Source of the DNA: Methanococcoides vulcani
GTDB taxonomy: Archaea; Halobacteriota; Methanosarcinia; Methanosarcinales; Methanosarcinaceae
DNA length: 64,000 bases
NCBI RefSeq assembly: GCF_900111645.1
Contig: NZ_FOHQ01000004.1
Coordinates: 62,001 to 126,000, forward strand
Reading direction: 5' to 3'
Shown: one piece after another, positions 11,893-37,987 of the stretch
Numbering within the stretch: position 1 is the stretch's first letter
Layout: each line of letters opens with the position of its first letter
Notes under the pieces: generated by a model
Told to the model about the DNA's origin: nothing
The model's input: only the letters and a program-made list of their open reading frames with translations
Databases searched by the model: none
Program-made: the position numbers and the translations under genes

Positions 11893-12247
11893 TCAATGTT
11901 GCTATGGTTTTAACGATGGTACTTTCTGCAGATGTATCTCATAACCTTCCCTGGCTTTTTGCACCTGTTCCTCAACCCATGGCTCAGATCCGATCTCCTT
12001 GAATCGCTCATACCTGTCCATGGTGTCAGGGTCGGCATAGTCCTAGGTCCTGGAACATGGTAACTCTTCACATTCAAAACAGATGGGTAACCCCTTTTCA
12101 GTACAGCATTCCCTTACCTCACACCAGGGTGGTCCTCCACACTGTCGGCACTCTGGACATGTTGCATTATCGATGAACCATTCTAATCCCTGCATAAATT
12201 GTTTGAAATCGAACTCCCCAATTACAATTTTTCTGAAAGTTAATTAA
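11893..12247 (-). pseudogene. Truncated DUF3795 protein gene with in-frame TAG
   Basis: Minus-strand translation gives EFDFKQFMQGLEWFIDNATC, then PECRQCGGPPWCEVRECCTE, then a block ending FECEELPCSRT, a TAG at 12045-12043, then DYADPDTMDRYERFKEIGS and a tail to about 11893. The spaced cysteines and the C-E-x-R-x-C-C core are those of DUF3795 zinc-finger-like proteins. The N-terminal Cys block and a start codon are missing (an in-frame TAA lies near 12245), so this is a 5'-truncated remnant whatever happens at the TAG. The partial copy at 10923-10981 has Lys at the TAG position. Confidence 0.75.
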
Positions 12248-12972: not shown

Positions 12973-12988
12973 TGGTGCTCCGGCCGGG
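12973..12988. repeat. Attachment-site repeat, integrase side
   Basis: The 16-bp sequence tggtgctccggccggg is identical to the 3' end of the tRNA-Glu gene at 37972-37987, but here there is no tRNA body next to it. It therefore marks the far junction of the integrated element. Confidence 0.9.
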
Positions 12989-14758: not shown

Positions 14759-14974
14759 ATGACTGAAAAATATATACAAAAAAATGAAAATGTCATAACC
14801 AGGAAGCTGTATTGCAGAACAGGTGCCGGCATGCGCGTGCAAATACCTGCAGTACTTGCAACTTTAGCAGGTCTGAAAGGTAACGAAGACGTCCAATTGG
14901 ACTTAGAGAACGGGAAGATTGTCATTACCCCCGTTTCAGATTTATTGGTAAAAGCTATGGAGATAAAATGTTAA
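14759..14974 (+). CDS. AbrB/SpoVT-like DNA-binding protein
   Basis: A 71-residue protein with a swapped-hairpin AbrB-type pattern: TRKLYCRTGAGMRVQIPAVL followed by ATLAGLKGNEDVQLDLENGK and IVITPVSD. Such proteins are transcription regulators, often autoregulatory, or antitoxins. No toxin gene adjoins it. Its 3' end overlaps the start of the helicase gene by 7 bp, so the two are translated together, and it may control element replication. The inverted repeats upstream at 14555-14684 are a plausible binding site. Confidence 0.7.
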   Translation: MTEKYIQKNENVITRKLYCRTGAGMRVQIPAVLATLAGLKGNEDVQLDLENGKIVITPVSDLLVKAMEIKC

Positions 14975-16302
14975 AGCAAAACAACGATGCAAAGAAGTGC
15001 AAGTTCGATGCATCGCGAAATAGGAATGATTCAATGACTGATTGTAACTCTTACCTTAAAAGTGTTTCCAAGGATGAAGCTATAGACATTAAAGCTGTAG
15101 CTGATGATATCTTGTCACACATTAGAGTCTTGCATATTCAAGAAACAGGCGAGACTTTGTATTATAAAGATGGAAGGTATGTCAAAAGTGGCGAATGGAT
15201 TATCAGAAGAGAAATCCAACGCCTCATCGGTTCTTATGCTGATGAAAAAACAAAAAGGGACATTATTTCATACATTTGTGATGAAACTCGAATCTCCAGA
15301 GATGATCTAGATTGTGACCCTGATGTCATCAACTTGGAAAATGTTCTGTATGATGTGAAGACTGGAGAATTCAGGGAACATAGTCCAGAATTCCTGTCAA
15401 CAATACAAATTCCAGTGGTTTATGTACCAGGCATGTCATGTCCTTTGATTATGAAAACACTGACAGAACTATTACCACCTGAAGATTTACAGATATGTTT
15501 GGAATTTTTAGGTTATTGTCTTACACCAAAGACCAACATGAAAAAGGCATTGATGCTCTTGGGTTTGGAAAACACTGGTAAATCTGTGTTAATGGACTTG
15601 GCGACATATTTCCTTGGAGTGGATAATACATCACGTATTTCGCTTCAAAAGATGTCATATGACAAATATGCCACTTCCAGATTTGATGGTACATTGTTAA
15701 ACTGCTATTCTGATATCGATTGGAAGAAAACTTCCAGCTTATCAGTTTTTAAGGAAGTAACTGGTGAACGTTTTGTGCATGCCGAAGAGAAATATGGCAC
15801 TTCATATGAGTTTAACAACATGACTAAACACATGTTTGCTGCAAGCCGTCTGCCACATGGAAAATACCTTGATTCTGTATTTTTGGACAGATGGTTGGTC
15901 ATTAATCTCAAACATCAGTACAAAGGCAAGGATGCTGATGTTGATCTTATTGACAAGCTCAACAAACCGGATGAATTATCAGGACTATTAAATTTGGTCT
16001 TAAATGCATTAAAAGGCTTGAGAGAGCGTGGTTACTTCAAGCATGCCGACAAGTCCGCAAAGATATTGGATGCACTGAGTAGTGATACAGCATCAGTCCA
16101 ATCATTTGTCAAGGATGTTGTAACTCGGAAAAAAGGACATTCAATTTACAAAAGTGATATGTATGCTGCATATGCGAACTGGTGTAATAGTTCTTTGATG
16201 GTACCAACTTCAAAGATTGGATTTGGAAGGGCTTTTTCAGGCTGCAGTTTCAATGGAGATAAAAATAAATGGCATAATTGCTCTTTAAAAGGGGAATATT
16301 AA
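14968..16302 (+). CDS. Phage/plasmid primase-helicase C-terminal type (D5/P4 family)
   Basis: A 444-residue protein with the D5_N/SF3 helicase arrangement of P4-family replication proteins: an N-terminal part of about 180 residues including LIMKTLTELLPPEDLQICLE (D5_N), Walker A as LMLLGLENTGKSVLMDLATY, Walker B region LNCYSDIDW, and sensor-like NMTKHMFAASRLPHG followed by FLDRWLVINL. It is shorter than full primase-helicases because there is no AEP/primase domain; the host primase may be used. It is the likely replication initiator helicase, directly upstream of origin-like repeats. Stop TAA is followed by a long T-run. Confidence 0.85.
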   Translation: MLKQNNDAKKCKFDASRNRNDSMTDCNSYLKSVSKDEAIDIKAVADDILSHIRVLHIQETGETLYYKDGRYVKSGEWIIRREIQRLIGSYADEKTKRDIISYICDETRISRDDLDCDPDVINLENVLYDVKTGEFREHSPEFLSTIQIPVVYVPGMSCPLIMKTLTELLPPEDLQICLEFLGYCLTPKTNMKKALMLLGLENTGKSVLMDLATYFLGVDNTSRISLQKMSYDKYATSRFDGTLLNCYSDIDWKKTSSLSVFKEVTGERFVHAEEKYGTSYEFNNMTKHMFAASRLPHGKYLDSVFLDRWLVINLKHQYKGKDADVDLIDKLNKPDELSGLLNLVLNALKGLRERGYFKHADKSAKILDALSSDTASVQSFVKDVVTRKKGHSIYKSDMYAAYANWCNSSLMVPTSKIGFGRAFSGCSFNGDKNKWHNCSLKGEY

Positions 16303-17429: not shown

Positions 17430-18032
17430 ATGTTTAACAACAAATTTGAAAATATGGACATCGGTGAAGATTTTGATGAATGGGAAATAAACCATCACGT
17501 CTGGGAAATTGGCGATGCGATTGAAAGGCTGCAAGAATTAATGCTTTCCATACAGTCCCTGAAGGTTGAAGAGAAGGACGGTAGTTATTCCTATTCTTAT
17601 GCCCAGATGGTCCCGGGTGATGAATCCTCTTTTGAGGAAATAGAAGAAGAATCTACGCTACCAATGAGTGAATTTTTCAGGGAAAAAATGGCTGAAATTT
17701 TGCTAGGATGTTATAACATCAAGGAGTTGGAAGAAGTCTATAAAGAAGAGAAAATCGTGGAATTAAAACGTGATTTTTATAGACAGGGCATTAAATGTCA
17801 GTGGCTTCATGATCAAATTGCAAGAGGAGAAGTGGTCGATCAATCTCCTGAAGATATCATGGATAATGATTCCTACAGATGCTATAGAACCTAGGTAAAC
17901 GAGTTCGAAATATTTAGGACGGAATTCTGTAAGATTTGCAGAGAGGAAGAAGAAGCACGTCGAAACGAGGAGGAGGAATCTCATAGGGATGCTACTGAAG
18001 AGAGAGGCGGTTTAGGAGCCCTCTTCTCTTAA
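17430..18032 (+). CDS. Acidic element protein with in-frame TAG at codon 155 (paralog A)
   Basis: Read to the first TAG (17892-17894) this is a 154-residue acidic protein. Beyond the TAG the same frame stays open for 45 codons, starting VNEFEIFRTEFCKICREEEE, to a TAA at 18030-18032. It is a paralog of the gene at 18825-19352: both contain the DG-x-Y-x-Y-S-Y core, a D/E-FF-x-x-K block and N-I/D-x-LE-x-Y. Their C-termini align without gaps across the TAG (DNDSYRCYRT-TAG-VNEFEIF against DNDVYNYYLYQRERYLIF), the TAG facing Gln. Full length is therefore probably 200 residues with pyrrolysine or another residue at 155. Function unknown. Confidence 0.7.
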
Positions 18033-18084
18033 ATGCATTTGTCAATGGGAAATTTTACGGACTTTAGAATATGGAGATATTAAT

Positions 18085-18561
18085 ATGACTAATCGTAATG
18101 AAATTATGTTTGGTTATTGTCAAGAAGTGATAGAAAAGGTGTCTGGACTGTTAGTACAGTCCACGCCTGCTCTTATGGAATTGGCTGAAATTGGTGATAC
18201 GGAGATTACATTCCATCGAGGAAATAATATTGCGGTGGCTGATAAGTCTGTTTATGTTAGAGTCAAGACACCTTTTTCATGTGATTTGTTATGTGCAGAT
18301 ACATTAGCTATGTTAAATGTGTTCGTTGATACAGAAAATTTTGATGACAATACATCATTACCTGCTTATGAATGCATGCGTCTTCTTCTGAACGGCATAT
18401 TGTCTCTTTTGATAATAACACCTGAACAGAGAGATGCACAATTCCATCTTGCAGAATACCTTGCATCACCAGAATTTCAAGAAGGTGGAATGGTGAAGTT
18501 TTTGCCTGATCTTTCTGTTGATTTTGAAAATCTTGTTTATTATGAAGAATCTGAAGACTGA
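18085..18561 (+). CDS. Hypothetical protein
   Basis: A 158-residue acidic protein with GGAGAT upstream of its ATG. The sequence appears globular and mixed alpha/beta (GYCQEVIEKVSGLLVQSTPA, then ITFHRGNNIAVADKSVYVRV, then CADTLAMLNVFVDTENFDD). There is no membrane segment and no motif that I recognise. It lies between the two acidic paralogs, all on the plus strand, and probably forms a small operon with them. Ends with TGA. Confidence 0.6.
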   Translation: MTNRNEIMFGYCQEVIEKVSGLLVQSTPALMELAEIGDTEITFHRGNNIAVADKSVYVRVKTPFSCDLLCADTLAMLNVFVDTENFDDNTSLPAYECMRLLLNGILSLLIITPEQRDAQFHLAEYLASPEFQEGGMVKFLPDLSVDFENLVYYEESED

Positions 18562-18602
18562 TTGAGGCAATAACTTCTATCAGAGGAAGAATTGCAAGAG
18601 GA

Positions 18603-18788
18603 ATGGTGGGATTATACAGGTGGCTGCGGCTTAGATCTGTAAGGAAATACCATCATTCGGTGCACTTGTCAATGTGGATGGTGATGTCATCATCATCCTT
18701 TCCAATAGGATTTGCTGTGAGTTTTGCTATTTATGTGACATATTGTATGGTTCACTCAATCTTAAATATTCAAAAAGAATGCAAATAA
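18603..18788 (+). CDS. Doubtful small ORF
   Basis: 61 codons, basic N-terminal half and one hydrophobic stretch (GFAVSFAIYVTYCMVHSIL). There is no clear ribosome-binding site. Another frame over the same DNA gives acidic coding-like peptides (EEELQEEWWDYTGGCGLDL), so this could be a decayed gene rather than a membrane protein. Confidence 0.2.
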   Translation: MVGLYRWLRLRSVRKYHHSVHLSMWMVMSSSSFPIGFAVSFAIYVTYCMVHSILNIQKECK

Positions 18789-18824
18789 AATCAAAAATTG
18801 ATTAATTTGAAAATTGGTAAAATA

Positions 18825-19352
18825 ATGGATGAAATTAGTCTAAAAAATATTAGAGTTGATGAAGAGTTTGATGCAATGGTAAAGGAATACTGTCAAAAAA
18901 GAATTCACATGACAAACAAATTCACATCGTTTGCTAATACTTTAAATTTTGAAGAAAATGGTGATGGCTACACGTATTCCTATAGCTATAAGGTATCAGA
19001 TAATACTAATACTGAAGTTATTAGAGAGGATTCTAATCTGGAACCAGACGATTTTTTCCAAATGAAGAAAGATAAAATGTTCAAAGAATTGTATAGTATC
19101 AATGACTTGGAACAGATATATTGGTTTGGAAAATGCATTGAAATGGGGTATGAACAATGGTTGCTGGTAAGGTTGTGTGAATATCTAAAATCTAGGGGTA
19201 CGATGGCTGTAAAGGTACATAATAATTCATATGAGGTTTTTGATAATGATGTATACAATTACTATCTATATCAAAGAGAACGATATCTGATTTTTCACGA
19301 AGAAATGGAAGTACTTCGAAATGAGTGGAATCAAGATAAAGGTGGAGCATAA
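18825..19352 (+). CDS. Acidic element protein (paralog B)
   Basis: A 175-residue protein, paralog of 17430-18032. An upstream TTG at 18798 is possible, but the ATG at 18825 aligns residue for residue with the start of paralog A. Shared features are the DGYTYSYSYKV core, a following acidic loop, FFQMKKDKM and INDLEQIY; the C-terminal DNDVYNYYLYQRERYLIFHE is uninterrupted here. Rich in Asp, Glu and Tyr, no membrane segment. Function unknown. Its uninterrupted C-terminus is the evidence that the TAG in paralog A lies inside a coding region. Confidence 0.65.
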   Translation: MDEISLKNIRVDEEFDAMVKEYCQKRIHMTNKFTSFANTLNFEENGDGYTYSYSYKVSDNTNTEVIREDSNLEPDDFFQMKKDKMFKELYSINDLEQIYWFGKCIEMGYEQWLLVRLCEYLKSRGTMAVKVHNNSYEVFDNDVYNYYLYQRERYLIFHEEMEVLRNEWNQDKGGA

Positions 19353-19419
19353 ACCAATCCCACCATCTACTTGTTTCTGTTCCTTACTGTCGTATACACT
19401 AAAGCAGAGGGCGCCGCCC

Positions 19420-20475
19420 TCAAACCCCATCCTTTGCCAGTGCCTGGCACTTGCTGTAATCAGTCTTCTTCATTATCCTGCACCCCTTCACTCCAGAAAC
19501 CTCTGAAACCACCCATATCCCATCATATTGCAATTTTATATGGAATCGGTGTTCTTGTATGTCCTTCGCTCCCAACTCTTCACAGAACCCTTCATTGACC
19601 ATTTTGATTCCAGTTCTGGTATCACATACAACAACTTCACCATTCTTCCACTTCATTTTCATCAATTCCCCAACATTGGATGATGCTATTATGCGGTATG
19701 GGCGATAATGGACAAGCGAATCGAAAAATTTCTTTTTCAAATATCGACCATGATATTCATTGATCAGATCGAATCTCTTCACCATGTCGGTACTGACACT
19801 CTTCTTTGCAGTGGTCTTTGATGGTTCCTTTTCAGATTCAGATGGCTTTACCTTCATTTTTTCCATCTGAATGTTGTGGTTCAACTGTTGATTCCGCAAG
19901 CGGTTGATTTCTTCCTTCAGCTCATCAATTTTCTTATTGGAAAGCTCATTGCTCTCTACTAATTCCTCATATGAAAGAACACGCTGTTCCCCATATTCAT
20001 CATCAACGGCTTCGATGGACTCTGGAACAGGTAACACTTTTATAACTTTCTGGACGGTTTCAACTATCTCAGGCTTATCGTCCTGAAGGGTCTTCAGATA
20101 ATCTTCTATTTGCTCCCTCGCAGTTTCATCACCTGATAGGTACTTCACAGCGATTTCCATTCCAATATTTGTTCCATATCTGGAAACAATGGCATCAAGC
20201 TTATTTGCAAACCTTTCTCTGCATAGATAGGGATTATCGGCATGGAGCTAACCTTTTTCAGTCAGGGAATAATAATATGGCTTCTTTCCCTGCATCTGAA
20301 TGTAGCCGTTCTTGCAGTATTTATTCAGGTTCACCCTGAATGAATTATAATTTTCATATGGAATGCTATTAAAGATGTCTTTCGATATCAATGGTGCCGG
20401 AATCAAGGCTTGCAGAACCATAGCCTTGAGATGACAGTCGTTCGAGGAGATTTTGTTTACCGAAATATTTTCCAT
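19420..20475 (-). CDS. Winged-helix/coiled-coil protein with in-frame TAG at codon 76
   Basis: A 74-codon winged-helix frame (MENISVNKISSNDCHLKAMV, ending KKPYYYSLTEKG) reaches a TAG at 20250-20248. The same frame then runs on with no stop through LHADNPYLCRERFANKLDAI into a 246-codon coiled-coil protein that begins at 20160 and ends at 19420. Read through, the product is 351 residues: wHTH (1-75), linker, coiled coil (about 175-235, with KKIDELKEEINRLRN), and a C-terminal alpha/beta domain (WKNGEVVVCDTRTG, DGIWVVSEVSG). The S-L-T-E-K-G wing end is normally followed by more protein. Likely a DNA-binding regulator or partition-like protein. Confidence 0.7.
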
Positions 20476-21213
20476 TTTTCATCAAGTCCAAAATTGCAAC
20501 TTCATTGAAGTTACCCTTATATAGATAACATGGAACTTTCAATGGTTATATGTGTTGCTACAATGTCAATGCAATGCGTTTTTGATGGCAATCTCTTCGG
20601 TGAATATGTAAAAAAGAAGATGGATATGAATTTTGCATCGATTTTATTATTAATAATAATCTTCAAAATTTGATTACTAGTAATAATATTTGAGTGGTTG
20701 GAATTTCCTGTATTTCTTTGAGTTTGTGATAGATTTGTGAAATTCAATATATTCACATAATTCCCACAATATCAATAGTTGATATTGAAAAATAGTGATT
20801 GAAAGATGTTTCAGTAATTTTCAATGAATTTTGTCGTTTTCACATAATCATTTGTGTTTTTATAGGTTCGAATCTTACCTCCCGCATGTAATGTTGGGGA
20901 TATAGGTAACTCGAATTTTTTGTACGCTAGATTGACAATGATAACTGTATGAATATTTGATATTCCACTCATTTTCTAGTTTGTCTAGTAACTTTCAAAT
21001 ATATTCATATAAGTTACATTGAAGGAGCCTCTGAATTTTATATAAGCACAGATACAATTCAAAATTTATATATACTATTGCACAGTTACAAATTAGCGTT
21101 CGGTTCAGTTGAACATAACGCTCTTGATACTATTTATAGAAATAATGTATGGAGTCTGATGAATAAAATTTTAATCCCTATGCTATAAGTATATGAAAAT
21201 GAAGGTGCTTTTT
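20476..21213. other. AT-rich intergenic region, 0.7 kb
   Basis: No gene is recognisable between the wHTH gene and modA. It contains a tRNA-3'-end-like fragment (20862-20886) and, before modA, the TATA-like tttatatatacta near 21066. Confidence 0.4.
20862..20886 (+). repeat. tRNA 3'-end-like fragment
   Basis: ataggttcgaatcttacctcccgca carries a T-loop (ttcgaat) with mostly pairable flanks and a following seven-base stretch ctcccgc plus A, in the position of an acceptor strand and discriminator. No tRNA body precedes it. It resembles the remnant left by an earlier tRNA-targeted integration. Confidence 0.35.
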
Positions 21214-22026
21214 ATGAATAAAAGAAATCAAACGTTAATGGTTGCCACAGCAATCATTATTGTCATAGTTCTTTCGGCTTTCTCAATTAATTCGAATGAT
21301 GACGAACAGAAACCTACCTCCATCACCATATCTGCATCAGCAGTGTTGACTGAAGTTTTCACAGATATGGAAGAAGAGTTTGAGGCTGAAAATCCTGATA
21401 TAGATGTCATAATGAACTTTGCAAATGCTGGTTCTCTAAGGATGCAAATTGAAGGAGGGGCACCTATAGATGTGTACGCTCCAGCAGATAGAGTTCAAAT
21501 GGATATTCTGGCTTCTGATGAATTCGTTTACAACGATTCCCGAAAAGACTTTGCAGGTAGCTACCTTGTGATAATAGTTCCAAAAGGCAATGTTCTTAAC
21601 CTAACAACAATGGAGGACCTTTCAAAGCCTGAAGTAAAAAGGATAGCTTCCACCGATACACAGATTTCAACAGTGGGTAAGTATGCAAAACAATCGCTAA
21701 TTGAAAAAGGCTTATGGAATAGCGTGCAAAATAAGATGATAGTAGGTGACACGGTAAAATCCGCAATGGTTCATGTAGAGAGAGGAGAAGTTGATGCCGG
21801 ATTTGTCTTCATGACAGATGTCAAGACTGCAAAACCAGATACAATAGAAGTGATAACTTCTGTACCGATGAGTGAAACTATTTTTTATCCTATAGCTGTA
21901 GTTACATCAACCCAACACCAGAAAGAATCTCAGATGTTCGTAGATTTTGTCACGGGAGAAAAAGGTAGCTCAATATTGGAGCAGTACGGTTTCACAATTC
22001 CAAAACACGATTTAGAAGATACTTAA
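21214..22026 (+). CDS. modA: Molybdate ABC transporter substrate-binding protein ModA-like
   Basis: A 270-residue extracytoplasmic binding protein. An N-terminal hydrophobic anchor (TLMVATAIIIVIVLSAFSI) is followed by the ModA start SITISASAVLTEVFTDMEEE, FANAGSLRMQIEGGAPIDVY and PKGNVLNL. The conserved Asp/Tyr ligand region VDAGFVFMTDVKTA and the C-terminal FVDFVTGEKGSSILEQYGF are also family features. It would bind molybdate or tungstate outside the membrane. The start at 21214 has AAGGTG upstream. No modB or modC gene is next to it, so in this element it is an orphan that would need host permease parts. Confidence 0.85.
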   Translation: MNKRNQTLMVATAIIIVIVLSAFSINSNDDEQKPTSITISASAVLTEVFTDMEEEFEAENPDIDVIMNFANAGSLRMQIEGGAPIDVYAPADRVQMDILASDEFVYNDSRKDFAGSYLVIIVPKGNVLNLTTMEDLSKPEVKRIASTDTQISTVGKYAKQSLIEKGLWNSVQNKMIVGDTVKSAMVHVERGEVDAGFVFMTDVKTAKPDTIEVITSVPMSETIFYPIAVVTSTQHQKESQMFVDFVTGEKGSSILEQYGFTIPKHDLEDT

Positions 22027-22527
22027 TAAGCCCCTTCTTTATGGTTAGCCAGATTTCCTACAATACATCGTTTTTCACTAAATAACGATGAAGCTTCAAA
22101 TATATTAATTTCCTTTAGGTTTATTCAAAATTGTCTATAGTTCCATTGTAGTGCTTTCATTATCCTTTCCACATTCCTTGAACCAAAATTCAAATCCTTT
22201 TCCTTTACTTTTTTCTTCAAAAGCCTTTAACAACACTCTCCCCAACTCTCCAACCTTTCCCTAACATGAGCATTGGGAGTAAATAGTTTATCACTCTTGG
22301 CGTTCTGCTTCATATAATGCAATGTGCCTTTAGAGAACCCATCTTCTTCCTCAGCAGGTCAGTATCATTCCTCCTACCAACATAAACAGGCTTCATGAAT
22401 TCAACCGTTTTTTTCTTCCCCACAAGATGATGGCTGGACAGAACTCAATCACACAATACAGGTGTATTCCGTTCCATATTATATGGTCGGTAAAGATATA
22501 TATACTGTGTAACATAAAATATATTTT
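22027..22527. other. Intergenic region with minus-strand gene remnant
   Basis: On the minus strand, roughly 22240-22400, there are two short frames in different phases: MKPVYVGRRNDTDLLRKKMG, and GFSKGTLHYMKQNAKSDKLF with a basic end. They overlap and look like the frameshifted C-terminus of a lost DNA-binding or enzyme gene. The promoter of the serine recombinase (tatatatactgtgtaac, near 22495) closes the region. Confidence 0.35.
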
Positions 22528-23160
22528 ATGGAAGAATTGAAAAACGCAGTTGGATATGCCAGAACAAGCACCAAAGACCAGAATATCGATACACAGATAC
22601 TGCAACTGAAAAACAAGGGAATGCCTGCTGAACACATCTTTTATGATGAAGGTATCAGTGGAAGTATTCCTGCTGGAAAAAGACCTGGGTTCAAGCAATT
22701 GTTGAAATGCATTGAATCCAATGACATCGATACTATCTACCTTTTTGAAATATCAAGGCTTGGAAGGACGTTTATTGATACATTGAACCTGATAATGGAT
22801 TTTGAAGATAAAGGAATCAGGATTGTTTCATTGAGTCCAAGTGAATCATGGTCTACTATTGAAGATTCTCATTATAGAAGGCTGCTGACCTCTTTGTTTG
22901 GTTGGGTGGCTGAGAATGAGAAGAGGATTTTACAGGAACGTATTAAGGTAGGTATTGAACGGTATAAGAAAGAGAATGATAGATGGGGTCGACCTACAAA
23001 GGAACCTGATAAGAAAGAGGTTATGAAGTACAGAAAGAAGGGACTGACTTGGGCTGAGATTTCACGGGTGATGAATATTCCAGCAAGCACGTTGTACAAG
23101 TACAGGGATATCTGGGAAGAACGGGGTAGGGTGGAGAAGGTTAAGGGTGTGGATGGGTAA
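22528..23160 (+). CDS. Serine recombinase (resolvase/invertase family)
   Basis: A 210-residue small serine recombinase. The catalytic N-terminus reads VGYARTSTKDQNIDTQILQL with the active Ser in the A-R-T-S segment. FYDEGISGSIPAGKRPGFKQ and IYLFEISRLGRTFIDTLNLI carry the conserved Arg residues of the active site. The C-terminal helix-turn-helix is KKGLTWAEISRVMNIPASTL. It may catalyse inversion, resolution or transposition. No TnpB-type partner is adjacent, so an IS607-type element is unlikely. A 5'-truncated copy lies at 24797-25209. Confidence 0.9.
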   Translation: MEELKNAVGYARTSTKDQNIDTQILQLKNKGMPAEHIFYDEGISGSIPAGKRPGFKQLLKCIESNDIDTIYLFEISRLGRTFIDTLNLIMDFEDKGIRIVSLSPSESWSTIEDSHYRRLLTSLFGWVAENEKRILQERIKVGIERYKKENDRWGRPTKEPDKKEVMKYRKKGLTWAEISRVMNIPASTLYKYRDIWEERGRVEKVKGVDG

Positions 23161-23209
23161 ATGACAATTTCATTCCATTACTCTTGTCAATCCCATTCGA
23201 TACCGACAG

Positions 23210-23917
23210 ATGAGAGTGGAACAGCACATGGAAATGCAAAATATCCTTCACAATCTCCAACATGAAAATAATTCACTTGTCCGTGAGGTCGCTGAACTTC
23301 AGAACCAGACTGATAGTGACAATCAACCTGCTGGTTCAAATCAAGTTCAAGCCCCCATAGGAGCAAATGGTGACACTTTAATTTTCAGACCCGATGAAAC
23401 CCTTGAAACAGATGTAACTAGTGTCTATGGCGCTAATTATAATCTTCAGAAAAAAGTTAAGAAATTTGTATCGGTTATTGAAAATTTGAATCGAACAATA
23501 GATAAATTGCGGCTTGATGTTGCTATTTTGAAAGAAACAAATTCAAAATTAGCGTCACCTGAAGTTAATAATATCGTTGAACAAAAGGTGCAGGCTGGTG
23601 TTAAAAAGAACATCAGTGCTGAAAAAAGAAGGTCAATGGTCAACTGGTATAAACACAATCAAAATGGCTTTCTGGATTATGCTTTTTTTGCTGATTGGGG
23701 TGTCTATCCTGTTCGGGTGAAAGGTAAAAATGTCATACGGAAAGGCGATATTGAAATTATTGCACATAGCAATGCAGAATTTAAGCGTGGTCACATCAAA
23801 TATGAGCTTACACCAGAACAGGTTTATCAAGGTGATTTTCACATCTGTGGTGAAACAAAAAGTGGGATTTACGTTATCGGGAGCGGCATGAAAGATTCGA
23901 AGTATTTGAAATATTAA
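23210..23917 (+). CDS. Coiled-coil protein
   Basis: A 235-residue protein with two coiled-coil stretches, about residues 1-35 (NILHNLQHENNSLVREVAEL) and 80-125 (VKKFVSVIENLNRTIDKLRL). A C-terminal basic/aromatic domain after 145 has RRSMVNWYKHNQNGFLDYAF and SGIYVIGSGMKDSKYLKY. Architecture (coiled coil then small beta-rich end) resembles the wHTH/coiled-coil protein at 19420-20475, but homology is not clear by eye. It follows the serine recombinase by 49 bp. Function unknown. Confidence 0.55.
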   Translation: MRVEQHMEMQNILHNLQHENNSLVREVAELQNQTDSDNQPAGSNQVQAPIGANGDTLIFRPDETLETDVTSVYGANYNLQKKVKKFVSVIENLNRTIDKLRLDVAILKETNSKLASPEVNNIVEQKVQAGVKKNISAEKRRSMVNWYKHNQNGFLDYAFFADWGVYPVRVKGKNVIRKGDIEIIAHSNAEFKRGHIKYELTPEQVYQGDFHICGETKSGIYVIGSGMKDSKYLKY

Positions 23918-24061
23918 TGGTGATAAAAGAACTTTGCTTCTTAATTACACCTTTGCTAACTCATCAAACAACCACTTGTGTTCTAAATAAATCTCATTAA
24001 TTGATTTTTCGATGCAACATATATACATTTTGTTACATTATCCTGGTAAAAAGGATTAAGA

Positions 24062-24352
24062 TTAATCGATTGTTTGTTTACCAACTGTAGGTATTGCGCC
24101 TGCAAAAGATTTCATAATTAAAGGTGCAGAAACTCCTACATGAATGATTAAAATGGGCGAATACTCCATTCCACCTTCATAATATGCCCAAGCAAGAAAA
24201 CTTCCAACAAGTGGTCCACCGAAGAACTGTACTGTATACAACCAATCAGAAAAAGTTGGAGTACGTTTAGCTTTAGGAGTAGTTTGCAACTCTAAAAGAC
24301 GAATAAAATTTATTGCTAAGCCACCAAAATATGCTAAAAGAACAAATTTCAT
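24062..24352 (-). CDS. Small hypothetical membrane protein
   Basis: About 96 residues with two to three hydrophobic segments (MKFVLLAYFGGLAINFIRLL, WLYTVQFFGGPLVGSFLAWA, YSPILIIHVGVSAPLIM). GGGGGT lies 11 bases before the ATG at 24352; an upstream ATG at 24379 is the alternative. It follows the wHTH gene at 24389-24658 by a short gap and is probably its operon partner. No family is recognised. Confidence 0.5.
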   Translation of the reverse strand: MKFVLLAYFGGLAINFIRLLELQTTPKAKRTPTFSDWLYTVQFFGGPLVGSFLAWAYYEGGMEYSPILIIHVGVSAPLIMKSFAGAIPTVGKQTID

Positions 24353-24388
24353 TAAAATGGTTTTACCCCCTTTTATCATCCAGTCTTT

Positions 24389-24658
24389 TTATTTTACCTT
24401 ATCAGATAAAGCCGTTAATATGCGATTAGCGAAGTTTCCCTTTCTCATATATTTTTTCTTTGTTGTAAATATTTCATGTCCATTGTCATCCAAGTTAGAA
24501 GATTCGACAACCACACCTTTCATTTGAAGCTTAAATATTGCATGTTCTACTACATCTTTATTTAATGAATTTTCTCTAGCAATCCCACTGACAGTTCGCC
24601 AATCATATTCCGGTTCGTTTAACGAAGCAATTACTCTAATTTCTATATCGTCCGACAT
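24389..24658 (-). CDS. Small winged-helix-like protein
   Basis: An 89-residue protein beginning MSDDIEIRVIASLNEPEYDW, with the helical pattern of a winged helix (WRTVSGIARENSLNKDVVEH, then AIFKLQMKGVVVESSNLDDN) and a basic tail. A longer frame begins at 24763, but the ATG at 24658 has a strong GGAGGAAC site. A wHTH paired with a small membrane protein occurs in several stress or defence modules; that reading is speculative here. Confidence 0.5.
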   Translation of the reverse strand: MSDDIEIRVIASLNEPEYDWRTVSGIARENSLNKDVVEHAIFKLQMKGVVVESSNLDDNGHEIFTTKKKYMRKGNFANRILTALSDKVK

Positions 24659-24796
24659 ATTGCTAGTTCCTCCATTTAAATTGTAATTTTTTGTATGCCA
24701 ATTAAATAATTTTGTTCTTTTACTATTTAAAGATAATGACAAAATTTTTCTTATTTTGCTCAACCATTATTTATAATTTCATTTCTTGCTTGAATG

Positions 24797-25209
24797 AAAT
24801 ATCAAGGCTGGGAAGGACATTTGTTGATACCTTGAACCTGATTATGGATTTTGAAGAAAAAGGCATCAGGGTCGTTTCATTGAGTCCCAGTGAATCATGG
24901 TCTACGATTGAAGATTCACATTACAGAAGGCTGCTGACATCACTGTTCGGATGGGTAGCTGAGAATGAGAAGAGGATTTTACAAGAACGTATCAAGGTCG
25001 GTATTGAGCGGTACAAGAAGGAAAATGACAAGTGGGGGAGACCTACAAAGGAACCCGATAAGAAAGAAGTCATGAAATATAGGAAAAAAGGTTTGACATG
25101 GGCTGAAATTTCACGGGTGATGAATATTCCTGCCAGCACGTTGTATAAGTACAGGGATATTTGGGACGAACGTAGCAGGGTGGAGAAGGTTAGGGGTATT
25201 GTTGAATGA
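24797..25209 (+). pseudogene. 5'-truncated serine recombinase copy
   Basis: Nearly the same sequence as the last two thirds of the recombinase at 22528-23160 (matching from about 22748), beginning at EISRLGRTFVDTLNLIMDFE and ending with the intact HTH. The catalytic serine segment and first Arg are absent; the DNA upstream belongs to the opposite-strand wHTH gene region. It cannot be an active recombinase, although a DNA-binding fragment could be made. Divergence from the intact copy is mostly silent third-position change. Confidence 0.85.
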
Positions 25210-25669
25210 TAGTATAGTAGAACATTATGACTACTGTGAAGCATTATGTGGATTACACTGAACATTGAGAGGGATTTGATTAAGCAGCATGTGACGAGCT
25301 TGATGGGGTAGTGAAAAAGTAAGGCTTCTACACGAAAATCAGATATAGTTAGTTTGTATTGGAATGAAGATGGAATAAAAGAGCTCGGATTCCTTTCCTT
25401 GTATCTATGTTAGATTCTAAACAAAGATAAAAGACACGAGCTAATGAATGTTTAAGGATTAATGAAATCCATTTATTCCTATATTACAAATGAATGAGTC
25501 CAGTTTAAGTTATTTTATTTTAAAATTTTTATTTTTGTTTCATGATACCCAAAACTTAGATTTGTTACTAATGAACATTGGTATTTTTCTGAAATAGTAA
25601 TCCTGATTAATACTCTAAATCAGAAGAAGATTAATTTTGTCAAAATCTTAATAACAAAACCTTCTGATT
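25210..25669. other. Intergenic region without recognisable gene
   Basis: 460 bp of AT-rich DNA between the truncated recombinase and the 3' end of the radical SAM gene. I see no coding frame, RNA gene or clear repeat. Confidence 0.4.
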
Positions 25670-27322
25670 TCAAAGGAAAGAAGAAAATAATAAAAATATA
25701 GAAAGATATTCCTTTTGATCTTCCATCTCGAGTCCCTTCAAAGAAATATCAAACCCATTTTTAACGCAAAAACTCTTTGCTTTATTCATTCGTTCAATCA
25801 ATTCCAATATATCCTTGTCTGATTGAATTGCAGAAAATTCAGGAGGTCTATCAAGGTCAAAAAAACGGTATGTTGAATAAATATCACACCAATCATACAT
25901 ATCCAAAAGCTTTTGTCTTTGCTGTTTAATGTTCAGATTTTTTAAAGAAAGTGTTAAGTCGAATTTTTTACATCTGGTTCTTACTTGATTCATTAGTTTG
26001 ATGTGCTCAATCATCTTTTCATTCGATTGAATTTGATCATAACTCGTTGGCCTTCCTAATCCAAAAAATTTGTAAGTTGAGCGAATTGCACTCCATTTTT
26101 CCATATCTTTATTATACCCTATTTTGTCTTTGTAGAAATCTAGCAATTCTAATGGCTTGTTTATTCCTTTCATTTCGGTCCAGATTTTGTCAGGATTTTT
26201 AAGTTTAGACAAAACATATCTCACAGAAATATTGTGAATACGTACTAGTTTTCTAAAAAGCCTTACATCTGAGTCAGACCAATTTTCATGAATGAAATAA
26301 TCTTTCGAGCTTTGTCCAGATCTCCATTTGTGAGGGTCATAATTGTCATTTTTAATACTTAGTGGGCGGTATCTACAATCTGTAATCTGAACTTCCCACT
26401 TAAAACAATATTTGATTTTTTCAATCATCTCATCAATCGGAATTTCATAGTTGTAAATCATGAATACAAAAATATCTTTGCTGTTGTATCCAGCATCAAT
26501 AAGATGTTTTATCTGCATGGCAATCGTTTGCTTGTCAGAAATCGCACCATCCCACGCAATTCTGACATTTGTAAATCTTGCTTTTTTTAGTAAAATTGCA
26601 ATGTCAGGATCATTTTCTAGTAGTCTACCATCAAATCCACTTTGTGATTCATAAATAATTGGTCTCCCATTGATTCGTATTTCGGATAGTGCTACCAGTA
26701 CTTCCTTTATGTGCTTATTTGCCAAAAAATTATTGTCAAAAAAGATAACTTTATTTTTCCCAGCTGCCAAAATCTCTTCACTGATTCTTTCAGGTGTTTT
26801 ATCGAGTCTTTTGGGTTCAATTTTCCAAGTACCACAGAATGAACATTTTCTAATACAGCCCCTCATCCCATGCATTACATGATAATCTACGTTGTCTATG
26901 AGAGAATAATCAGGCATAGCCTCTTCTGCTTCACTATTAAGTCCCACAAAAACTTCTGCTTCATATTGTGTTAATTGTTTTTTGAAATAATCCATCTTAT
27001 GATGTAAAGTGGCATAGATACCACCAATAATGATCTTAGACTTCGGGAATTCATTTCTATAATGAGAAACACACTTCCAAACATTATCAGACCAATAAGT
27101 GAATAAAGTCGTGATCATTATCGTTTCATAGTCTCTCTTTAATTCTGTTTTAGACTTGTTGCCCCTAACCAGATTTACATAGCATCCTCTACTCTTGCAC
27201 TAGCTACCTATTTTCAAGAGACCAATTGGAATAAAGTTTTTATGAACTGAATTCGCCTTATTTTTACTTTTCTTTGGGTATGGAAAATTAGGTTCCACCA
27301 ATAAAATTGATTTCTTGTCCAT
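25670..27322 (-). CDS. Radical SAM protein with in-frame TAG at codon 41
   Basis: From ATG 27322 the frame encodes MDKKSILLVEPNFPYPKKSK and runs to HKNFIPIGLLKIGS, then a TAG at 27202-27200, then CKSRGCYVNLVRGN. It continues without a stop to TGA at 25670, 550 residues in all. The N-terminus is typical of B12-binding-type radical SAM proteins (ILLVEP and IPIGLLKI), the later YETIMITTLFTYWSD and IIIGGIYATL complete that domain, and GCIRKCSFCGTWK supplies the C-x3-C-x2-C [4Fe-4S] cluster. Starting downstream of the TAG would lose a third of the N-terminal fold. Substrate unknown. The TAG sits where a Tyr or similar residue is expected. Confidence 0.8.
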
Positions 27323-27438
27323 TATTTTTCCCTTATTGATGAATATGTTTTGAGGACTGAATTAAACAAAAGTGCTATTGGGTAAACTAGTTGCTCCAAT
27401 ATACAATTTTTGATGTGGTAAGGATTATATGGCAATTA

Positions 27439-30400
27439 TCAACTGTTTCTTTTTATGATTAAACACTTTTTAAGCTTTTCACTGATAGCATCATCAATTG
27501 GATCAGACAGTCTACTATTTCCACTAGCTACCCTTCTCAATGAAAAACCAAACATTCTTAAGAATCTACCAATTAATGACCCTTTTTTATTGATGAATTG
27601 ATAATTTTCAATAACATCTGAATTCCCAATTAATTTACCAATTACCAGTAAATTGTTCACATTATGGAATGAATAGTGCTTTTGTTCATTGATTCTTGCA
27701 GAACACAATACTTTAAAAGACGCTTCTTTATAAGAAACTAAACCTAATTCCATTGCTAAAGAATATAGCTTTTTTTTAGTGATTTTGTTATTCCCTTCAC
27801 TAAAAATATCAAGTACCTTTTCAGGACCAATTTCATTCCAAATGCTATTAAAGAATAAATTGTTAAATTCTTCTTCTGACAAACATTTTTTATCTAACAG
27901 AAAACCCACGAGATTAAATAAATTTTCTTTCTGTTGAAGAGATAACCAATATAAGCGTTTCATTTTTGTTTCATCATATTTCTTTCTGTAGTCTAAAGAA
28001 TTCAACACATCATAAAACGTTTTTAGATTTACCAAAGGCTCCAATATTGCTTCAAGAGCCATTTCATCTTCACTCATTAATGTCTTTAATAAGTAATTTT
28101 CAATACTTTCCCTTTCAACACCTTGGATATAAAATATTAAATCGCCTTCAACGAGTTCATCCACAGGTAAAAGAATGTAATCATCACTGACTTTCTTTCT
28201 AATCAATGTATTTATAGGGAAGGAGATAGTGCCAGTTTCATCTGTGTCATACTTAACAAGAAACTCAATTTGTTCTTTACAAGCATGAGATTCAACTGAA
28301 TTCTGAATACCTTCTGTGTTAGATTTCCATTTTAGTTCAGTCCAAAGATCTTGAATTGTTCTAATTTCATCTTTTTCAAGATCATTGTTGCCAAATGATG
28401 ACAAAATTTCATCCCTTATTAAAGTGTCAATTGGCGAATCATCGTTAATTTCATTCGCATTGTCCACAAATGAATTTTGAGTAGATGGCAATTGAAATCG
28501 TTTACTTTCACTTGTATTATTTACTGAAAATGATAAATCTTTATCAGAAATAATAGTTCGTTTTTCTGAAAGAAGAGCATCATATAAACTTATTTGATAC
28601 AATAATTGTTTGAAATTTGCTCCAGGATATCCAAAAAAAGTCACCTTCTTGAATGGAAGTAAGAGAGAATCATACCCTTGTGAAATCAAAATATCATTAT
28701 CTGAAACTGTGTGGAAAGGAAGTGGACCAGGAATTAATAATTCTGTATTTTGGATTAAACCAATTGGGAGGGTCAACATTTTTGAAAGCTTGCAATACAA
28801 AATATCTAGTTCATGCAAAGATTTTGAACGAGCATCTCTATCTCTGTATTGTAATTCAACATTTAATTTCAAACTGTTCTGGAATTTATTAAATTTTTGA
28901 TCGAAATCGATATTTAATACTGTCTTTTCATAAAAAGAACCGTTTTTCTGTACTGTCAAATTATATAGCACAAAACTATCAAATGTATCCCTACATGCCC
29001 TCTTGACATCCTCATTATACCTTAAATACCTGACAGAATTTTTTGTGGAAATAATAACTTTGAATTCATTATTTTCATAATACGTTTCTAACCTGATAAT
29101 CGAAGAAGATGCAAACATTTTTTTTAGTTTTTTTGTACTTGATCTTTGAAAGAGGCCTTGTTGATAAATTAGTACCTTTGATTTGTCTCCAAATATTAAA
29201 TATAATTCACTGTTTTTATACATTAATTTAGGAATATTTTGTGCATTCAACAGGTTTTTCATCGATTTGACAAGATAAAGTATAGAATCAATAAAAGATG
29301 ATTGTGTTGCTAAATATGGATATAAATTTGCTACTAAAATGGACTTATTACTATCATTCACATCTGTTTTTGGATTGTTAATCTCGAGCCCTTTGTTCAA
29401 TGTTTCAACTATGTAACTTTGAAAAAGTGTCCGTTTTGAGATTGCAGAAGTTGAAAATAAATTCCTGAATTCATACCCGATATCCCTAGAATTATTCAAT
29501 TCTGAGCATAGCCCACAAAATGTACTAACTGAGTGATTCTTTTCTTTCATAGTTGTAGAAAATATTTGATCTATAGGAAGAGTCATCCAAGATCCATTTT
29601 TAATACAACTGGTTTTAATTTCAGATGGTAAAAGAAAACTATTGAGCATTGGCGGAAAACTTATCAAATTTCTTTCCTTTTTCTCAATTTTTTCAGTATT
29701 AAGATGATCACGGATATTTTTTAGCTGTACATCAAGAGGCCAATCCCACTGAATAATATCATCTTTAGATATGTAGTTCGAACTAGTATTTAGCGGAGGT
29801 AAAATTATGCTATACAATAATGATGTGTTTTCTGGATAGTATAAATCCCATAGATCTCCTTCTAACGATAAGTTAACAATACTAGATGGAGGTTTTTCAA
29901 AACGATTACGTGATTCAAGACAAAATTGTTTTCCCAAATGAATTATATTTATTTCATTATTGTCTTTGATCTTGTCCAAAAAGGATGCTAACCCTTTAAG
30001 ATAAGGCCATGAAAAATGTAAAACCAGTTTAGTATCCATCTCACAAGATCTGTTTATTAAGCGAATAAGATTTTCAAAATTATACTTCCTCTCGTTTATT
30101 GATTCATATATTATCAATTTCGGATTGAAATTATTTAGTTGATAGTTGTCTTTTTCGAATTTAATCGTTTTTTCAGAAATAACAGATGCTGGAGATATAT
30201 CTGTAATTGGAATCGAAACAATCTTAGGCATTGTCTGAAAATTGCCATTTGATAAGTTGTTACTTACATTAGAATCATATTCATTTTTGTATTTTCTAGT
30301 TCCATATTTTGGCCTCTTTGAAACTTCAAATTCAGTTATTTCATTTGTGTCTTCATCAATAATCCCTTTACACCACAAAACATCGTGATAAAAATATAAT

Positions 30401-30750
30401 GAGCTAGACTGCAAACCATTAACGAGTTTTTTATACATTAAAGAAAAATAAACATCCGTACTTTTATTGAACGATTCATTGAACTGAAATCTCGAAGTTC
30501 CAATCAAAACATCACTTTTTGAATCATATGCAAATAAACATGATGCAAGGGCAGACATATTGAAAGGCCCTTGTGAAAATATAATGGTTACTTTTTTTGA
30601 TGATTTTTTTGATAATATAGAATCAAGAATGCTCAGTGAAATCGGAGACAGTTTATCCTCTGTATTTTTAGAAATAATCGACTATTGGAGTTCGTTTTCT
30701 TTACCTAAAATACATTTATATTCCACAGAACAAATCTCATCTTGATTCAT
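27439..30750 (-). CDS. Large DISARM-associated protein (DrmE-position), in-frame TAG at codon 23
   Basis: The ATG at 30750 overlaps the drmC stop as ATGA, and the frame encodes MNQDEICSVEYKCILGKENE-LQ, a TAG at 30684-30682, then SIISKNTEDKLSPISLSILD and on to TGA at 27439, 1103 codons in all. A conventional call would start at an internal ATG (30558) with no ribosome-binding site. I recognise no domain with certainty. The C-terminal third has FPINTLIRKKVSDDYILL and VDELVEGDLIFYI, a beta-strand pattern that reminds me of DrmE-like proteins of class 2 DISARM. Low GC, Lys/Asn/Ser-rich. Translational coupling to drmC argues for a shared function. Confidence 0.65.
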
Positions 30751-31556
30751 TTCCAAACACTCCCTTGCGAAAACATAAAATCAAAAACTTCACAGATTCC
30801 AAATACCTGAATACCTTCAATTAAACATCCGACTTCAAAATTCGCAACGAGATTGTTCATGCGTAATTCTGCACTTCCAACATATGCCATATCAAAATCA
30901 GCAATTATGAGTTTTGCATGAGTACTAGAAATTACATGCTTTTCACTAAAGTGATAGTCTATAATTTTTAAATTATCCACTTTTCCCAGATCTGTTGCCA
31001 TATCAATTAACCATTGAACTTCATTTCCACGGATTTTAGGTCGTTTGAATAGTTCTCTTGTCAGTAATCTAATTTCCACATCTCTTTTTAGTGCATCAGA
31101 CAACAACTTTCTTAAATCTGGAAAAGAAGAGTCATCTAAAACATTTTCTTCTATAAATGGTGAACAAATTCGAAGACATGTCTTAGTAGAACGAATTATT
31201 TTACGAAAACAATCAACACTATCTATCTGATTATTCCTTTTTTCAATGCTTTCAAGGCTTAATTCCCTTAATCGTGGTCTGGAAATTACAATTGATGTTT
31301 TAGTTTTAAAATTTGGTAGTTGAAAGGGTTTTATGAGCCTAACAACAGAGTCTTCCCAAGGATTTTTTTTAATAACCATAGCAAGAGTACCACTATCAAT
31401 TCCATTTTTGACAGTATTTATGAACTCTGCTTTGGTAATCGGTATCGAAGAAGTATATTGTTGACGAATATCTTTAATGCTGCTAGCTTTTGAATCGCAT
31501 AAGAAATCCTGAATATGATTACAGATTACTTCTTCGATATTTGGATTAATAATCAT
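30747..31556 (-). CDS. drmC: DrmC-like phospholipase D-family protein
   Basis: A 269-residue protein of the PLD superfamily. A clear HxK(x)4D motif is STHAKLIIADFDMAYVGSAE near residue 212, and the first half contains TCLRICSPFIEENVLDD, the usual strand before a (here degenerate) first motif. Size and gene order after drmA and drmB fit DrmC of the DISARM phage-defence system, a likely nuclease component that is dispensable in some experiments. The start ATG overlaps the drmB stop (ATGA), and its own stop overlaps the next ATG in the same way. Confidence 0.8.
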   Translation of the reverse strand: MIINPNIEEVICNHIQDFLCDSKASSIKDIRQQYTSSIPITKAEFINTVKNGIDSGTLAMVIKKNPWEDSVVRLIKPFQLPNFKTKTSIVISRPRLRELSLESIEKRNNQIDSVDCFRKIIRSTKTCLRICSPFIEENVLDDSSFPDLRKLLSDALKRDVEIRLLTRELFKRPKIRGNEVQWLIDMATDLGKVDNLKIIDYHFSEKHVISSTHAKLIIADFDMAYVGSAELRMNNLVANFEVGCLIEGIQVFGICEVFDFMFSQGSVWK

Positions 31557-33475
31557 AACAGGTAACCTTTCCCAAAGCGTTCAGAGTTCCCAACCAATGT
31601 CGATCTATCAAGCCCTTGGTTAAAATTGTAACAGACAAATTCAGGAATGTAACTACACGAATTGCATGCTCCCCCTTCATCATACATACAAGCAGGGTCT
31701 TGAGGACAATCTTCTGCCAACTCTTTCACTCTACTAAACCAGTCTTCTAAGTGGTATTCGTATGTAAATTCTAAACCACCAATATTGATACTGTTTGTAG
31801 AATAAATGAAAATTGAACTGGTATACGGACAAATGATTTCAGAAAGACTGCTGATATCCAACCCAGTATCAATTGTTGATTGTTGGATCAACATATGAGA
31901 ATATGTATGCAATAGAGTGTTAACTGCTTCTTTACATTTGTCATCATTTAGGACAGTATTTCTGAAATGTGTGTATGCATCAACTCCTTTCGGAACTTGT
32001 ATGTCACATGTAGATCCTATTTGTTCTTTATTAGCATGTAACCATTGCAATATTCTATCAAAATCAAGTTGGAACAATACACCCTCTGTAATGAAATCCC
32101 TTGCAAAAACGGTAGGCTTCTGCTTATTTGAGGCACCAGTCTCAATCGTCCTAAAAAGAACAGGGTCTCTTCTAGTTGAACCTTCAATTATTCCTAAAAG
32201 TGCCTGAATAATTTTTATATCTGAAAAATGAACAATTTTGTATAATCCAAACTTATTCAACCAAGTAGAAAAATCGTCTGGTTTACAAGAAGGTTCTTCT
32301 TTTTTGCTTCGATCTACAGAATAAAGTAAATTTGAGCATTGAAGATCATTTTCACTAAAATGTATGTTTTGTACAGATTCAAGAACCTTTTCAATATAGA
32401 TAATGCCATATCTGTTTTTAATTTTGACCTCATCAGCACCATCATCAATTCGAGATTTAGACTCTTTTAATACTCTTTGAACAAATGTTAAGAATGGGTT
32501 ATGATGAAGTTGATTGTGCTCTTCAATTTTTAGATTCAAATCAAGATCATCACAAACATCCTCAAAAATCTCTTTAATTTTTGACATGTTCCAAAATTCT
32601 TCTTCATTTGATAATGCACTTTTGAATTCAGGAAGACTTAATTTTGATTCCTCTTTCAAAGAACTAAAAAAGTAATTAAATGCTTCAGACAATAATATGT
32701 CATTAGTATTACTTTTTTTATCGGTATTGCTTTTCTTTGATAAATCAGGAATTGAAATCACATAAGGATGAACAATTGCTCCAGATCTTGCAGGAACCCC
32801 ACGGAATTGTTTTGGTTTTTTTGTTGACAAAACTTCTCCAGTTTTACGAATTGTGTGATCGCATTTATAAAAATAGAGACCTTGTTCATCATGACATTTT
32901 GTACATTGTACTTTATATGATCCAATTTTGTCTTTACCTTTCCATCCTAACTTTAGAAGTGTTCCCTTACCACCACATTTCTTACAATCATCTTTAATAT
33001 TTGTCATATAGTGAAGAGGTAAAAGTCTTCCACATTCATCACAAAAAGCAAGAAATGTAAATTGTTCCCAAGGATCATTGTTTTTGTGACCACACGTTCT
33101 TCCTTTATTCATTTCAAAATATTGATAGCAGCCGTCTTTTTTACAAATAGCACTTGATGGTGAAATTTTGAAAACACCTGATGCACCTTCTTCATCCACG
33201 TCATCAACAAGTTTAATTTTTTTGATTATTAAATCATCAGGAATTATTTCATGGAACATTCCACCGTCTGCCTTTCTCTGTGAAATTTTTTTGTTAATAA
33301 GTTTACTAAATATAGGTTTATACCTCTCAGAATTAAAATCATTTACAAAATCATAAAAGTTGAGACTTACTTCAAAACTCAAATATTGACCATATTTTCG
33401 TGAAAAAAATTGTCCTTTATGTCCTTGAAAAAAGCAACTACTTTCGGCGATGTCATGAATATATTTATTTTTCAT
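31553..33475 (-). CDS. drmB: DrmB-like DUF1998 protein
   Basis: A 640-residue protein. Several zinc-binding cysteine pairs occur in the first 230 residues (FCDECGRLLPLHY, DDCKKCGGKG, CTKCHDEQGLYFYKC). The DUF1998 signature occupies about residues 515-600 (TLLHTYSHMLIQQSTIDTGL, then CPYTSSIFIYSTNSINIGGL), and a final Cys cluster is DCPQDPACMYDEGGACNSC. In DISARM, DrmB forms a complex with the helicase DrmA and helps recognise foreign DNA. GGAGGTG spanning the drmA stop is its ribosome-binding site, so it is translated directly after drmA. Confidence 0.85.
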   Translation of the reverse strand: MKNKYIHDIAESSCFFQGHKGQFFSRKYGQYLSFEVSLNFYDFVNDFNSERYKPIFSKLINKKISQRKADGGMFHEIIPDDLIIKKIKLVDDVDEEGASGVFKISPSSAICKKDGCYQYFEMNKGRTCGHKNNDPWEQFTFLAFCDECGRLLPLHYMTNIKDDCKKCGGKGTLLKLGWKGKDKIGSYKVQCTKCHDEQGLYFYKCDHTIRKTGEVLSTKKPKQFRGVPARSGAIVHPYVISIPDLSKKSNTDKKSNTNDILLSEAFNYFFSSLKEESKLSLPEFKSALSNEEEFWNMSKIKEIFEDVCDDLDLNLKIEEHNQLHHNPFLTFVQRVLKESKSRIDDGADEVKIKNRYGIIYIEKVLESVQNIHFSENDLQCSNLLYSVDRSKKEEPSCKPDDFSTWLNKFGLYKIVHFSDIKIIQALLGIIEGSTRRDPVLFRTIETGASNKQKPTVFARDFITEGVLFQLDFDRILQWLHANKEQIGSTCDIQVPKGVDAYTHFRNTVLNDDKCKEAVNTLLHTYSHMLIQQSTIDTGLDISSLSEIICPYTSSIFIYSTNSINIGGLEFTYEYHLEDWFSRVKELAEDCPQDPACMYDEGGACNSCSYIPEFVCYNFNQGLDRSTLVGNSERFGKGYLL

Positions 33476-37971: not shown

Positions 37972-37987
37972 TGGTGCTCCGGCCGGG
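37972..37987. repeat. Attachment-site repeat, tRNA side
   Basis: The tggtgctccggccggg copy that forms the CCA end, discriminator, acceptor strand and first T-stem bases of tRNA-Glu. Identical to 12973-12988; integration here regenerates the intact tRNA gene. Confidence 0.9.

What the first reader, a model, noticed from the sequence alone, without database searches (positions are those of the whole stretch)
17430..30750. Four element genes share a single in-frame TAG: pyrrolysine-type recoding in a mobile element
Seen in sequence: four long frames of the element are each broken by exactly one TAG (17892-17894; 20250-20248; 27202-27200; 30684-30682), never by TAA or TGA, and each continues with coding-like sequence for 45 to 1080 codons. 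Each has independent support: paralog alignment, domain fusion, restored N-terminal fold, or ATGA overlap. Established knowledge: Methanosarcinaceae translate UAG with pyrrolysyl-tRNA and few genes end in TAG. Inference: these proteins, including one in a defence operon, contain pyrrolysine or are conditionally made, tying element functions to the host's Pyl system. Known Pyl proteins are mainly methylamine methyltransferases.
Basis: partly seen in the sequence, partly recalled or inferred. Interest (0 to 1): 0.93.

Follow-up and report, generated by a model that had tools for sequence, protein, structure and literature searches.

The report
Amber-containing genes in a methanogen element
A 25-kb mobile element in a methane-making archaeon carries four genes, one of them closing a defence-related operon, that can only be read in full if the 'stop' triplet TAG is translated as the 22nd amino acid pyrrolysine; the host appears to do this genome-wide, so the case is real but extends something already known.

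Summary
In detail: all four frames carry exactly one TAG and continue for 45, 275, 509 and 1080 codons. The recoding reading is well supported. The host has pylT, pylS, pylB, pylC and pylD. In a 675-kb sample TAG ends almost no gene, and in-frame TAG also occurs in ordinary host genes. One acyl-CoA ligase has TAG where nine sister genomes have CAG, with strong purifying selection on both sides. Homologues without a stop continue through each element TAG: Lys (AAG) in the closest relative of one, an invariant Tyr in another, Arg/Gln in the third, variable residues in the fourth. The fourth gene's ATGA start overlap, upstream of the TAG, is conserved in three homologous operons. The TAGs themselves are not conserved. 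The best explanation is that the element uses the host's amber-as-pyrrolysine code and acquired TAG as a permitted codon by single-base changes; a dedicated pyrrolysine switch has no support. The element spans about 12973-37987 at tRNA-Glu and carries a DISARM-related drmABC operon. Pyrrolysine-coding archaea and amber-containing transposases are already known; new is a cargo-bearing element with a defence-related operon under this code.

The parts
12973..12988 (.). attL: TGGTGCTCCGGCCGGG, 16-bp copy of the tRNA-Glu 3' end
   Evidence: exact match to 37972-37987
37972..37987 (.). attR, inside the 3' end of tRNA-Glu
37972..38049 (-). tRNA-Glu(TTC), integration target
   Evidence: ARAGORN
13044..14267 (+). 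tyrosine integrase with C-terminal zinc-ribbon-like stretch
   Evidence: PF00589 E=8e-18; NF040815 E=1e-24
14968..16302 (+). D5-type primase-helicase (D5_N + DUF5906)
   Evidence: Pfam
17430..18032 (+). P1: 200-aa element protein with TAG at codon 155; paralogue of 18798-19352
17892..17894 (+). in-frame TAG of P1; faces Arg/Arg/Gln in relatives
18798..19352 (+). P1 paralogue without a stop, continues through the homologous position
   Evidence: 28% identity; alignment
19420..20475 (-). P2: 351-aa protein, winged-helix-like N-terminus (my reading of the sequence) fused to a longer C-terminal part, TAG at codon 76
   Evidence: 63% identical stop-free homologue in a sister species
20248..20250 (-). 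in-frame TAG of P2; AAG (Lys) in the sister species
25670..27322 (-). P3: radical SAM protein (weak B12-type rSAM similarity), TAG at codon 41
   Evidence: PF04055 E=1.5e-10; weak B12 rSAM matches; 51% identical stop-free homologue L002
27200..27202 (-). in-frame TAG of P3; faces a Tyr conserved in 10 of 10 homologues
27439..30750 (-). P4: 1103-aa last gene of the drm operon, TAG at codon 23; start overlaps the drmC stop (ATGA)
30682..30684 (-). in-frame TAG of P4, in a variable N-terminal segment
30747..31556 (-). drmC-like phospholipase-D protein
   Evidence: PADLOC DrmC E=7.5e-14
31553..33475 (-). drmB-like protein
   Evidence: PADLOC DrmB E=1.8e-18
33478..36783 (-). drmA-like helicase
   Evidence: PADLOC DrmA E=3.6e-96
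11893..12195 (-). host DUF3795 protein outside the element, itself with two in-frame TAGs
   Evidence: PF12675 E=1.9e-7

Best explanation
The host is a Pyl-decoding methanogen, inferred to be a Methanococcoides species, in which TAG is for practical purposes a sense codon (pyrrolysine) and almost no gene uses it as a stop. An integrative element at tRNA-Glu, carrying a DISARM-related drmABC-P4 operon and a radical SAM gene, is expressed under that code. Four of its genes each acquired one TAG, most simply by a single-base change from a sense codon (TAG faces AAG in the closest relative of P2; a Tyr codon to TAG is inferred for P3). Charged tRNA-Pyl (CUA) is predicted to read each TAG, giving full-length proteins with one pyrrolysine. 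Shown: the sequences, the pyl genes, frame conservation, and purifying selection on P2. Inferred: actual insertion of pyrrolysine, neutral origin, and dependence of full-length products on the host's Pyl supply.
For: pylS, tRNA-Pyl CUA and pylB, pylC and pylD above curated cut-offs. TAG ends 10 of 611 called ORFs in 675 kb, and most of those are internal TAGs or spurious calls. Host acyl-CoA ligase: TAG against CAG in 9 of 9 sisters at 88-98% identity, dN/dS 0.02-0.06 on both sides. P2: TAG against AAG, dN/dS 0.13 before the TAG, 0.11 between the TAG and the next ATG, 0.26 over the whole part after the TAG. P3: homologues run through the position with Tyr. P4: the ATGA start upstream of the TAG is the same in three homologous operons and the N-terminal residues align. 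Element genes never end in TAG.
Against: No peptide evidence. pylB itself ends in TAG, so TAG can still stop (PMC2933860 says the same of M. burtonii and others). P3's TAG replaces an invariant Tyr, which could mean damage. P3 and P4 have no close relative, so selection there was not measured. The C-terminal part of P1 is supported only over about 10-30 residues.
Confidence: 0.85

Rival explanations
1. The TAGs are regulatory: full-length P1-P4 are made only when pyrrolysine is plentiful (methylamine growth), so the element couples its defence and control genes to host metabolism.
For: TAGs may be more frequent in the element than in host genes (3 of 12 against about 6 of 385 hand-filtered genes, p=0.0016; unfiltered p=0.054). 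P4's TAG lies near its start and P2's right after a winged-helix-like domain, where termination would have a clear effect. Carbon-source-dependent UAG decoding is described for Acetohalobium (cited in PMC8211752).
Against: No TAG is conserved in any homologue. Three of the four 100-nt stretches from the TAG show no unusual structure and one is marginal (z from -1.57 to 1.47). Similar TAGs sit in unrelated host genes.
Confidence: 0.07
2. The four genes are decaying: the TAGs are plain nonsense mutations.
For: The element carries a truncated resolvase copy (24712-25209); P3's TAG hits an invariant Tyr.
Against: All four lesions are TAG and none is TAA or TGA, although TAG is only 18% of stop triplets in the sample. 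P2 is under purifying selection on both sides. The host carries TAG inside a strongly conserved gene.
Confidence: 0.05
3. The TAGs are true stops and the downstream parts start at internal ATGs (20160, 27118, 30558) as separate genes.
For: Such ATGs exist and give long frames.
Against: Conserved sequence lies between TAG and internal ATG in P2, P3 and P4. The homologues are single fused frames. P4's start is fixed by a conserved ATGA overlap upstream of the TAG.
Confidence: 0.03

Closest known systems
Pyl-code archaea in which all TAG codons are read as pyrrolysine (Kivenson et al., Science 2025, including Methanococcoides burtonii; recalled from memory, not in the library)
   Same: Same genus by inference, TAG nearly absent as a stop, TAG inside unrelated genes
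   Different: Here it is shown in an integrative element with a defence-related cargo; no proteomics here
Methanosarcina transposases and TetR regulator with in-frame UAG (Zhang et al. 2005, reviewed in PMC2933860; PMC3639795)
   Same: Mobile-element genes with an in-frame amber in a Pyl-decoding host
   Different: Those TAGs are shared among transposase copies; these four are not shared with any homologue found and lie in cargo and element-specific genes
Pyrrolysine in Methanosarcina tRNA-His guanylyltransferase, Thg1 (neutral appearance; discussed in PMC2933860, details recalled)
   Same: TAG at a position best explained by neutral drift
   Different: A single host gene there; four element genes here
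DISARM systems (drmA, drmB, drmC)
   Same: drmA-drmB-drmC order and homology
   Different: All three score below NCBIfam's curated cut-offs; the fourth gene P4 matches no DrmE or other model; no methyltransferase was seen in the operon; a radical SAM gene is associated

Membership tests
Pyrrolysine-decoding host | pylT, pylS, pylB, pylC, pylD in the genome | tested here: met
Pyrrolysine-decoding host | methylamine methyltransferase genes with in-frame TAG | tested here: met
   two sampled host genes with TAG at codons 334 and 356, named mttB-like and mtbB-like by my reading of their sequences, not by a family search
Pyl-code archaeon (TAG as general sense codon) | TAG essentially unused as gene terminator | tested here: met
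   10 of 611 ORFs in a 675-kb sample, most of them internal TAGs or spurious; pylB is the clear exception
Pyl-code archaeon (TAG as general sense codon) | peptides with pyrrolysine at many TAGs | not testable with these tools
   needs mass spectrometry
Pyl-containing protein (P1-P4) | reading frame conserved on both sides of the TAG in stop-free homologues | tested here: met
   weakest for P1
Pyl-containing protein (P1-P4) | TAG itself conserved, as in MtmB, MtbB and MttB | tested here: not met
   no homologue found shares the TAG
DISARM | drmA, drmB and drmC | tested here: inconclusive
   clear PADLOC homology but below NCBIfam curated cut-offs
DISARM | DNA methyltransferase (drmMI or drmMII) | tested here: inconclusive
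   none among the operon's searched proteins; the rest of the genome was not searched
DISARM | DrmE in the fourth position | tested here: not met
   P4 matches no PADLOC or NCBIfam model
Integrative element at a tRNA gene | integrase, and att repeats one of which is the tRNA 3' end | tested here: met
   16-bp exact repeat 12973/37972; tyrosine integrase at 13044

The most novel reading that the evidence does not exclude
The element is code-locked: by spreading single TAGs through its control, radical SAM and defence genes it works fully only in hosts that translate TAG as pyrrolysine, and its defence operon is throttled by pyrrolysine supply, so that immunity depends on methylamine metabolism.
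Probability: 0.12. Interest if true: 0.8.

Novelty: new member of a known kind. Interest (0 to 1): 0.45.

Why it matters
It shows that horizontally moving DNA, including a defence-related operon, has taken on an archaeal host's non-standard code, which should limit such DNA to Pyl-decoding hosts. It also warns that standard annotation splits these genes: P4, P3 and P2 would be mis-started or cut. Absence of such genes from annotations of methanogens may therefore be an artefact.

Tried and rejected
Viral contigs: no relatives of the D5 protein or of P2. A scan of genome contigs with P3 found one bacterial relative only. A downstream RNA signal (PYLIS-like): three of four stretches ordinary, one marginal. 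A simple gene caller with TAG as sense also gives spurious upstream extensions and wrong-strand frames; I did not count those as Pyl genes. Enrichment of TAG in the element depends on hand filtering (p 0.0016 to 0.054), so I do not rely on it.

Full report
Observation. The four TAGs exist at the stated coordinates and each is the only stop in its joined frame. The joined proteins are P1 (17430-18032, 200 aa), P2 (20475-19420, 351 aa), P3 (27322-25670, 550 aa) and P4 (30750-27439, 1103 aa). None of the 18 listed element genes ends in TAG.

Host. The genome holding the window has pylS next to a tRNA-Pyl with anticodon CUA, and pylB, pylC and pylD all above NCBIfam cut-offs. There is one full aRF1. 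One genome of the same genus has 2,575,032 bases, the size I remember for Methanococcoides burtonii; I therefore take the genus to be Methanococcoides, as an inference.

Is TAG a sense codon in this host? I sampled 675 kb. Of 611 called ORFs, 326 end in TGA, 275 in TAA and 10 in TAG. Six of the ten TAGs are internal to longer genes: two methylamine methyltransferase-like genes, a SepCysS-like gene, an acyl-CoA ligase, a YHS-type gene and P1 (names from my reading of the sequences, except the ligase). One is pylB, and the other three look like wrong-strand or marginal calls. Among TAGs that end a coding-like segment, 5 of 8 are followed in frame by coding-like sequence, against 29 of 517 TAA/TGA (p = 4e-5). 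A 200-kb sample of the sister genome shows the same pattern: five of its 6 TAG ends are followed by coding-like frames of 24 to 1271 codons. The best single test is the acyl-CoA ligase just outside the window (G000:C10:129036-130337). Its codon 202 is TAG where nine sister genomes at 88-98% identity have CAG, with dN/dS of 0.02-0.06 before and after. pylB does end in TAG, as a review reports for M. burtonii and others (PMC2933860), so termination at TAG is not excluded everywhere.

The four element genes. P2: a 63% identical homologue in a sister species has AAG (Lys) at the TAG. dN/dS is 0.13 before the TAG, 0.11 between the TAG and the next ATG, and 0.26 over the whole part after the TAG. 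About 20 more distant relatives read through the place in one frame with various residues. P3: a 51% identical bacterial homologue and nine others have Tyr exactly there, within a conserved block. P4: the homologues in three other genomes lie in the same operon order, drmA-drmB-drmC-P4. In all three the start ATG overlaps the drmC stop by four bases, as it does here. The residues before and after the TAG align, so the gene starts upstream of the TAG. P1: its paralogue has Gln and two relatives have Arg at the TAG; homology continues about 10-30 residues beyond it.

The element. A 16-bp exact copy of the tRNA-Glu 3' end lies at 12973, beside a tyrosine integrase, so the element spans about 12973-37987. 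It carries a D5-type primase-helicase, serine resolvases and a DISARM-related operon. The drm proteins are clear homologues but below NCBIfam's curated cut-offs, and P4 matches no DrmE model, so I call the operon DISARM-related only. P3 homologues sit close to the same operon in the three other genomes, and in one of them a DGQHR-domain gene adjoins it, so P3 is probably part of the same module.

Mechanism. The evidence fits ordinary translation of TAG as pyrrolysine by the host system. The sites differ from each other in the residue they replace, no homologue found shares a TAG, and three of four TAG-proximal stretches have no unusual RNA structure, the fourth being marginal. I see no support for a dedicated switch. 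P3's TAG at an invariant Tyr is the one site where pyrrolysine might change function or mark damage.

Relation to known work. In-frame amber codons in transposases and a TetR gene of Methanosarcina, and neutral appearance of pyrrolysine, are in the literature (PMC2933860, PMC3639795). From memory, and not in the library, a 2025 Science paper by Kivenson and colleagues reports archaea including M. burtonii that read all TAG codons as pyrrolysine. I found no paper on pyrrolysine in an integrative element's defence cargo in the searches made, but most subscription papers were not searchable.

Noticed in passing
window 11893-12195 (-): Host DUF3795 gene outside the element with two in-frame TAGs; a partial copy lies at 10914-10983.
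   Followed up: partly
L007:3036-4340 (+), G000:C10:129036-130337: Acyl-CoA ligase with TAG where nine sister genomes have CAG, under strong purifying selection.
   Followed up: yes
L108:3461-5982, L109:3175-5715, L110:12252-14764: P3-like radical SAM genes near the drmABC-P4 operon; in L108 the neighbour is a DGQHR (DpdB-like) gene, and genes of similar size sit beside it in L109 and L110. Possibly an undescribed DISARM/Dpd hybrid.
   Followed up: partly
L003:9795-10907 (-): pylB ends in TAG right at the start of pylC; read-through would add 42 residues. A possible self-regulating stop.
   Followed up: partly
L079:9746-10309 (-): A gene near the related element of sister genome G016 has its own in-frame TAG at codon 86; its coding score is low, so it may be spurious.
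   Followed up: no
window 22528-23160 and 24712-25209 (+): Two serine resolvase copies, 86% identical over 300 nt; the second lacks its N-terminal part.
   Followed up: no
window 21193-22026 (+): A periplasmic substrate-binding protein (SBP_bac_11) carried inside the element.
   Followed up: no
L103-L107 (G017), joined position 66189-68867 (-): A sister-genome frame of 892 codons continues past TAG for 1271 more coding-like codons.
   Followed up: no
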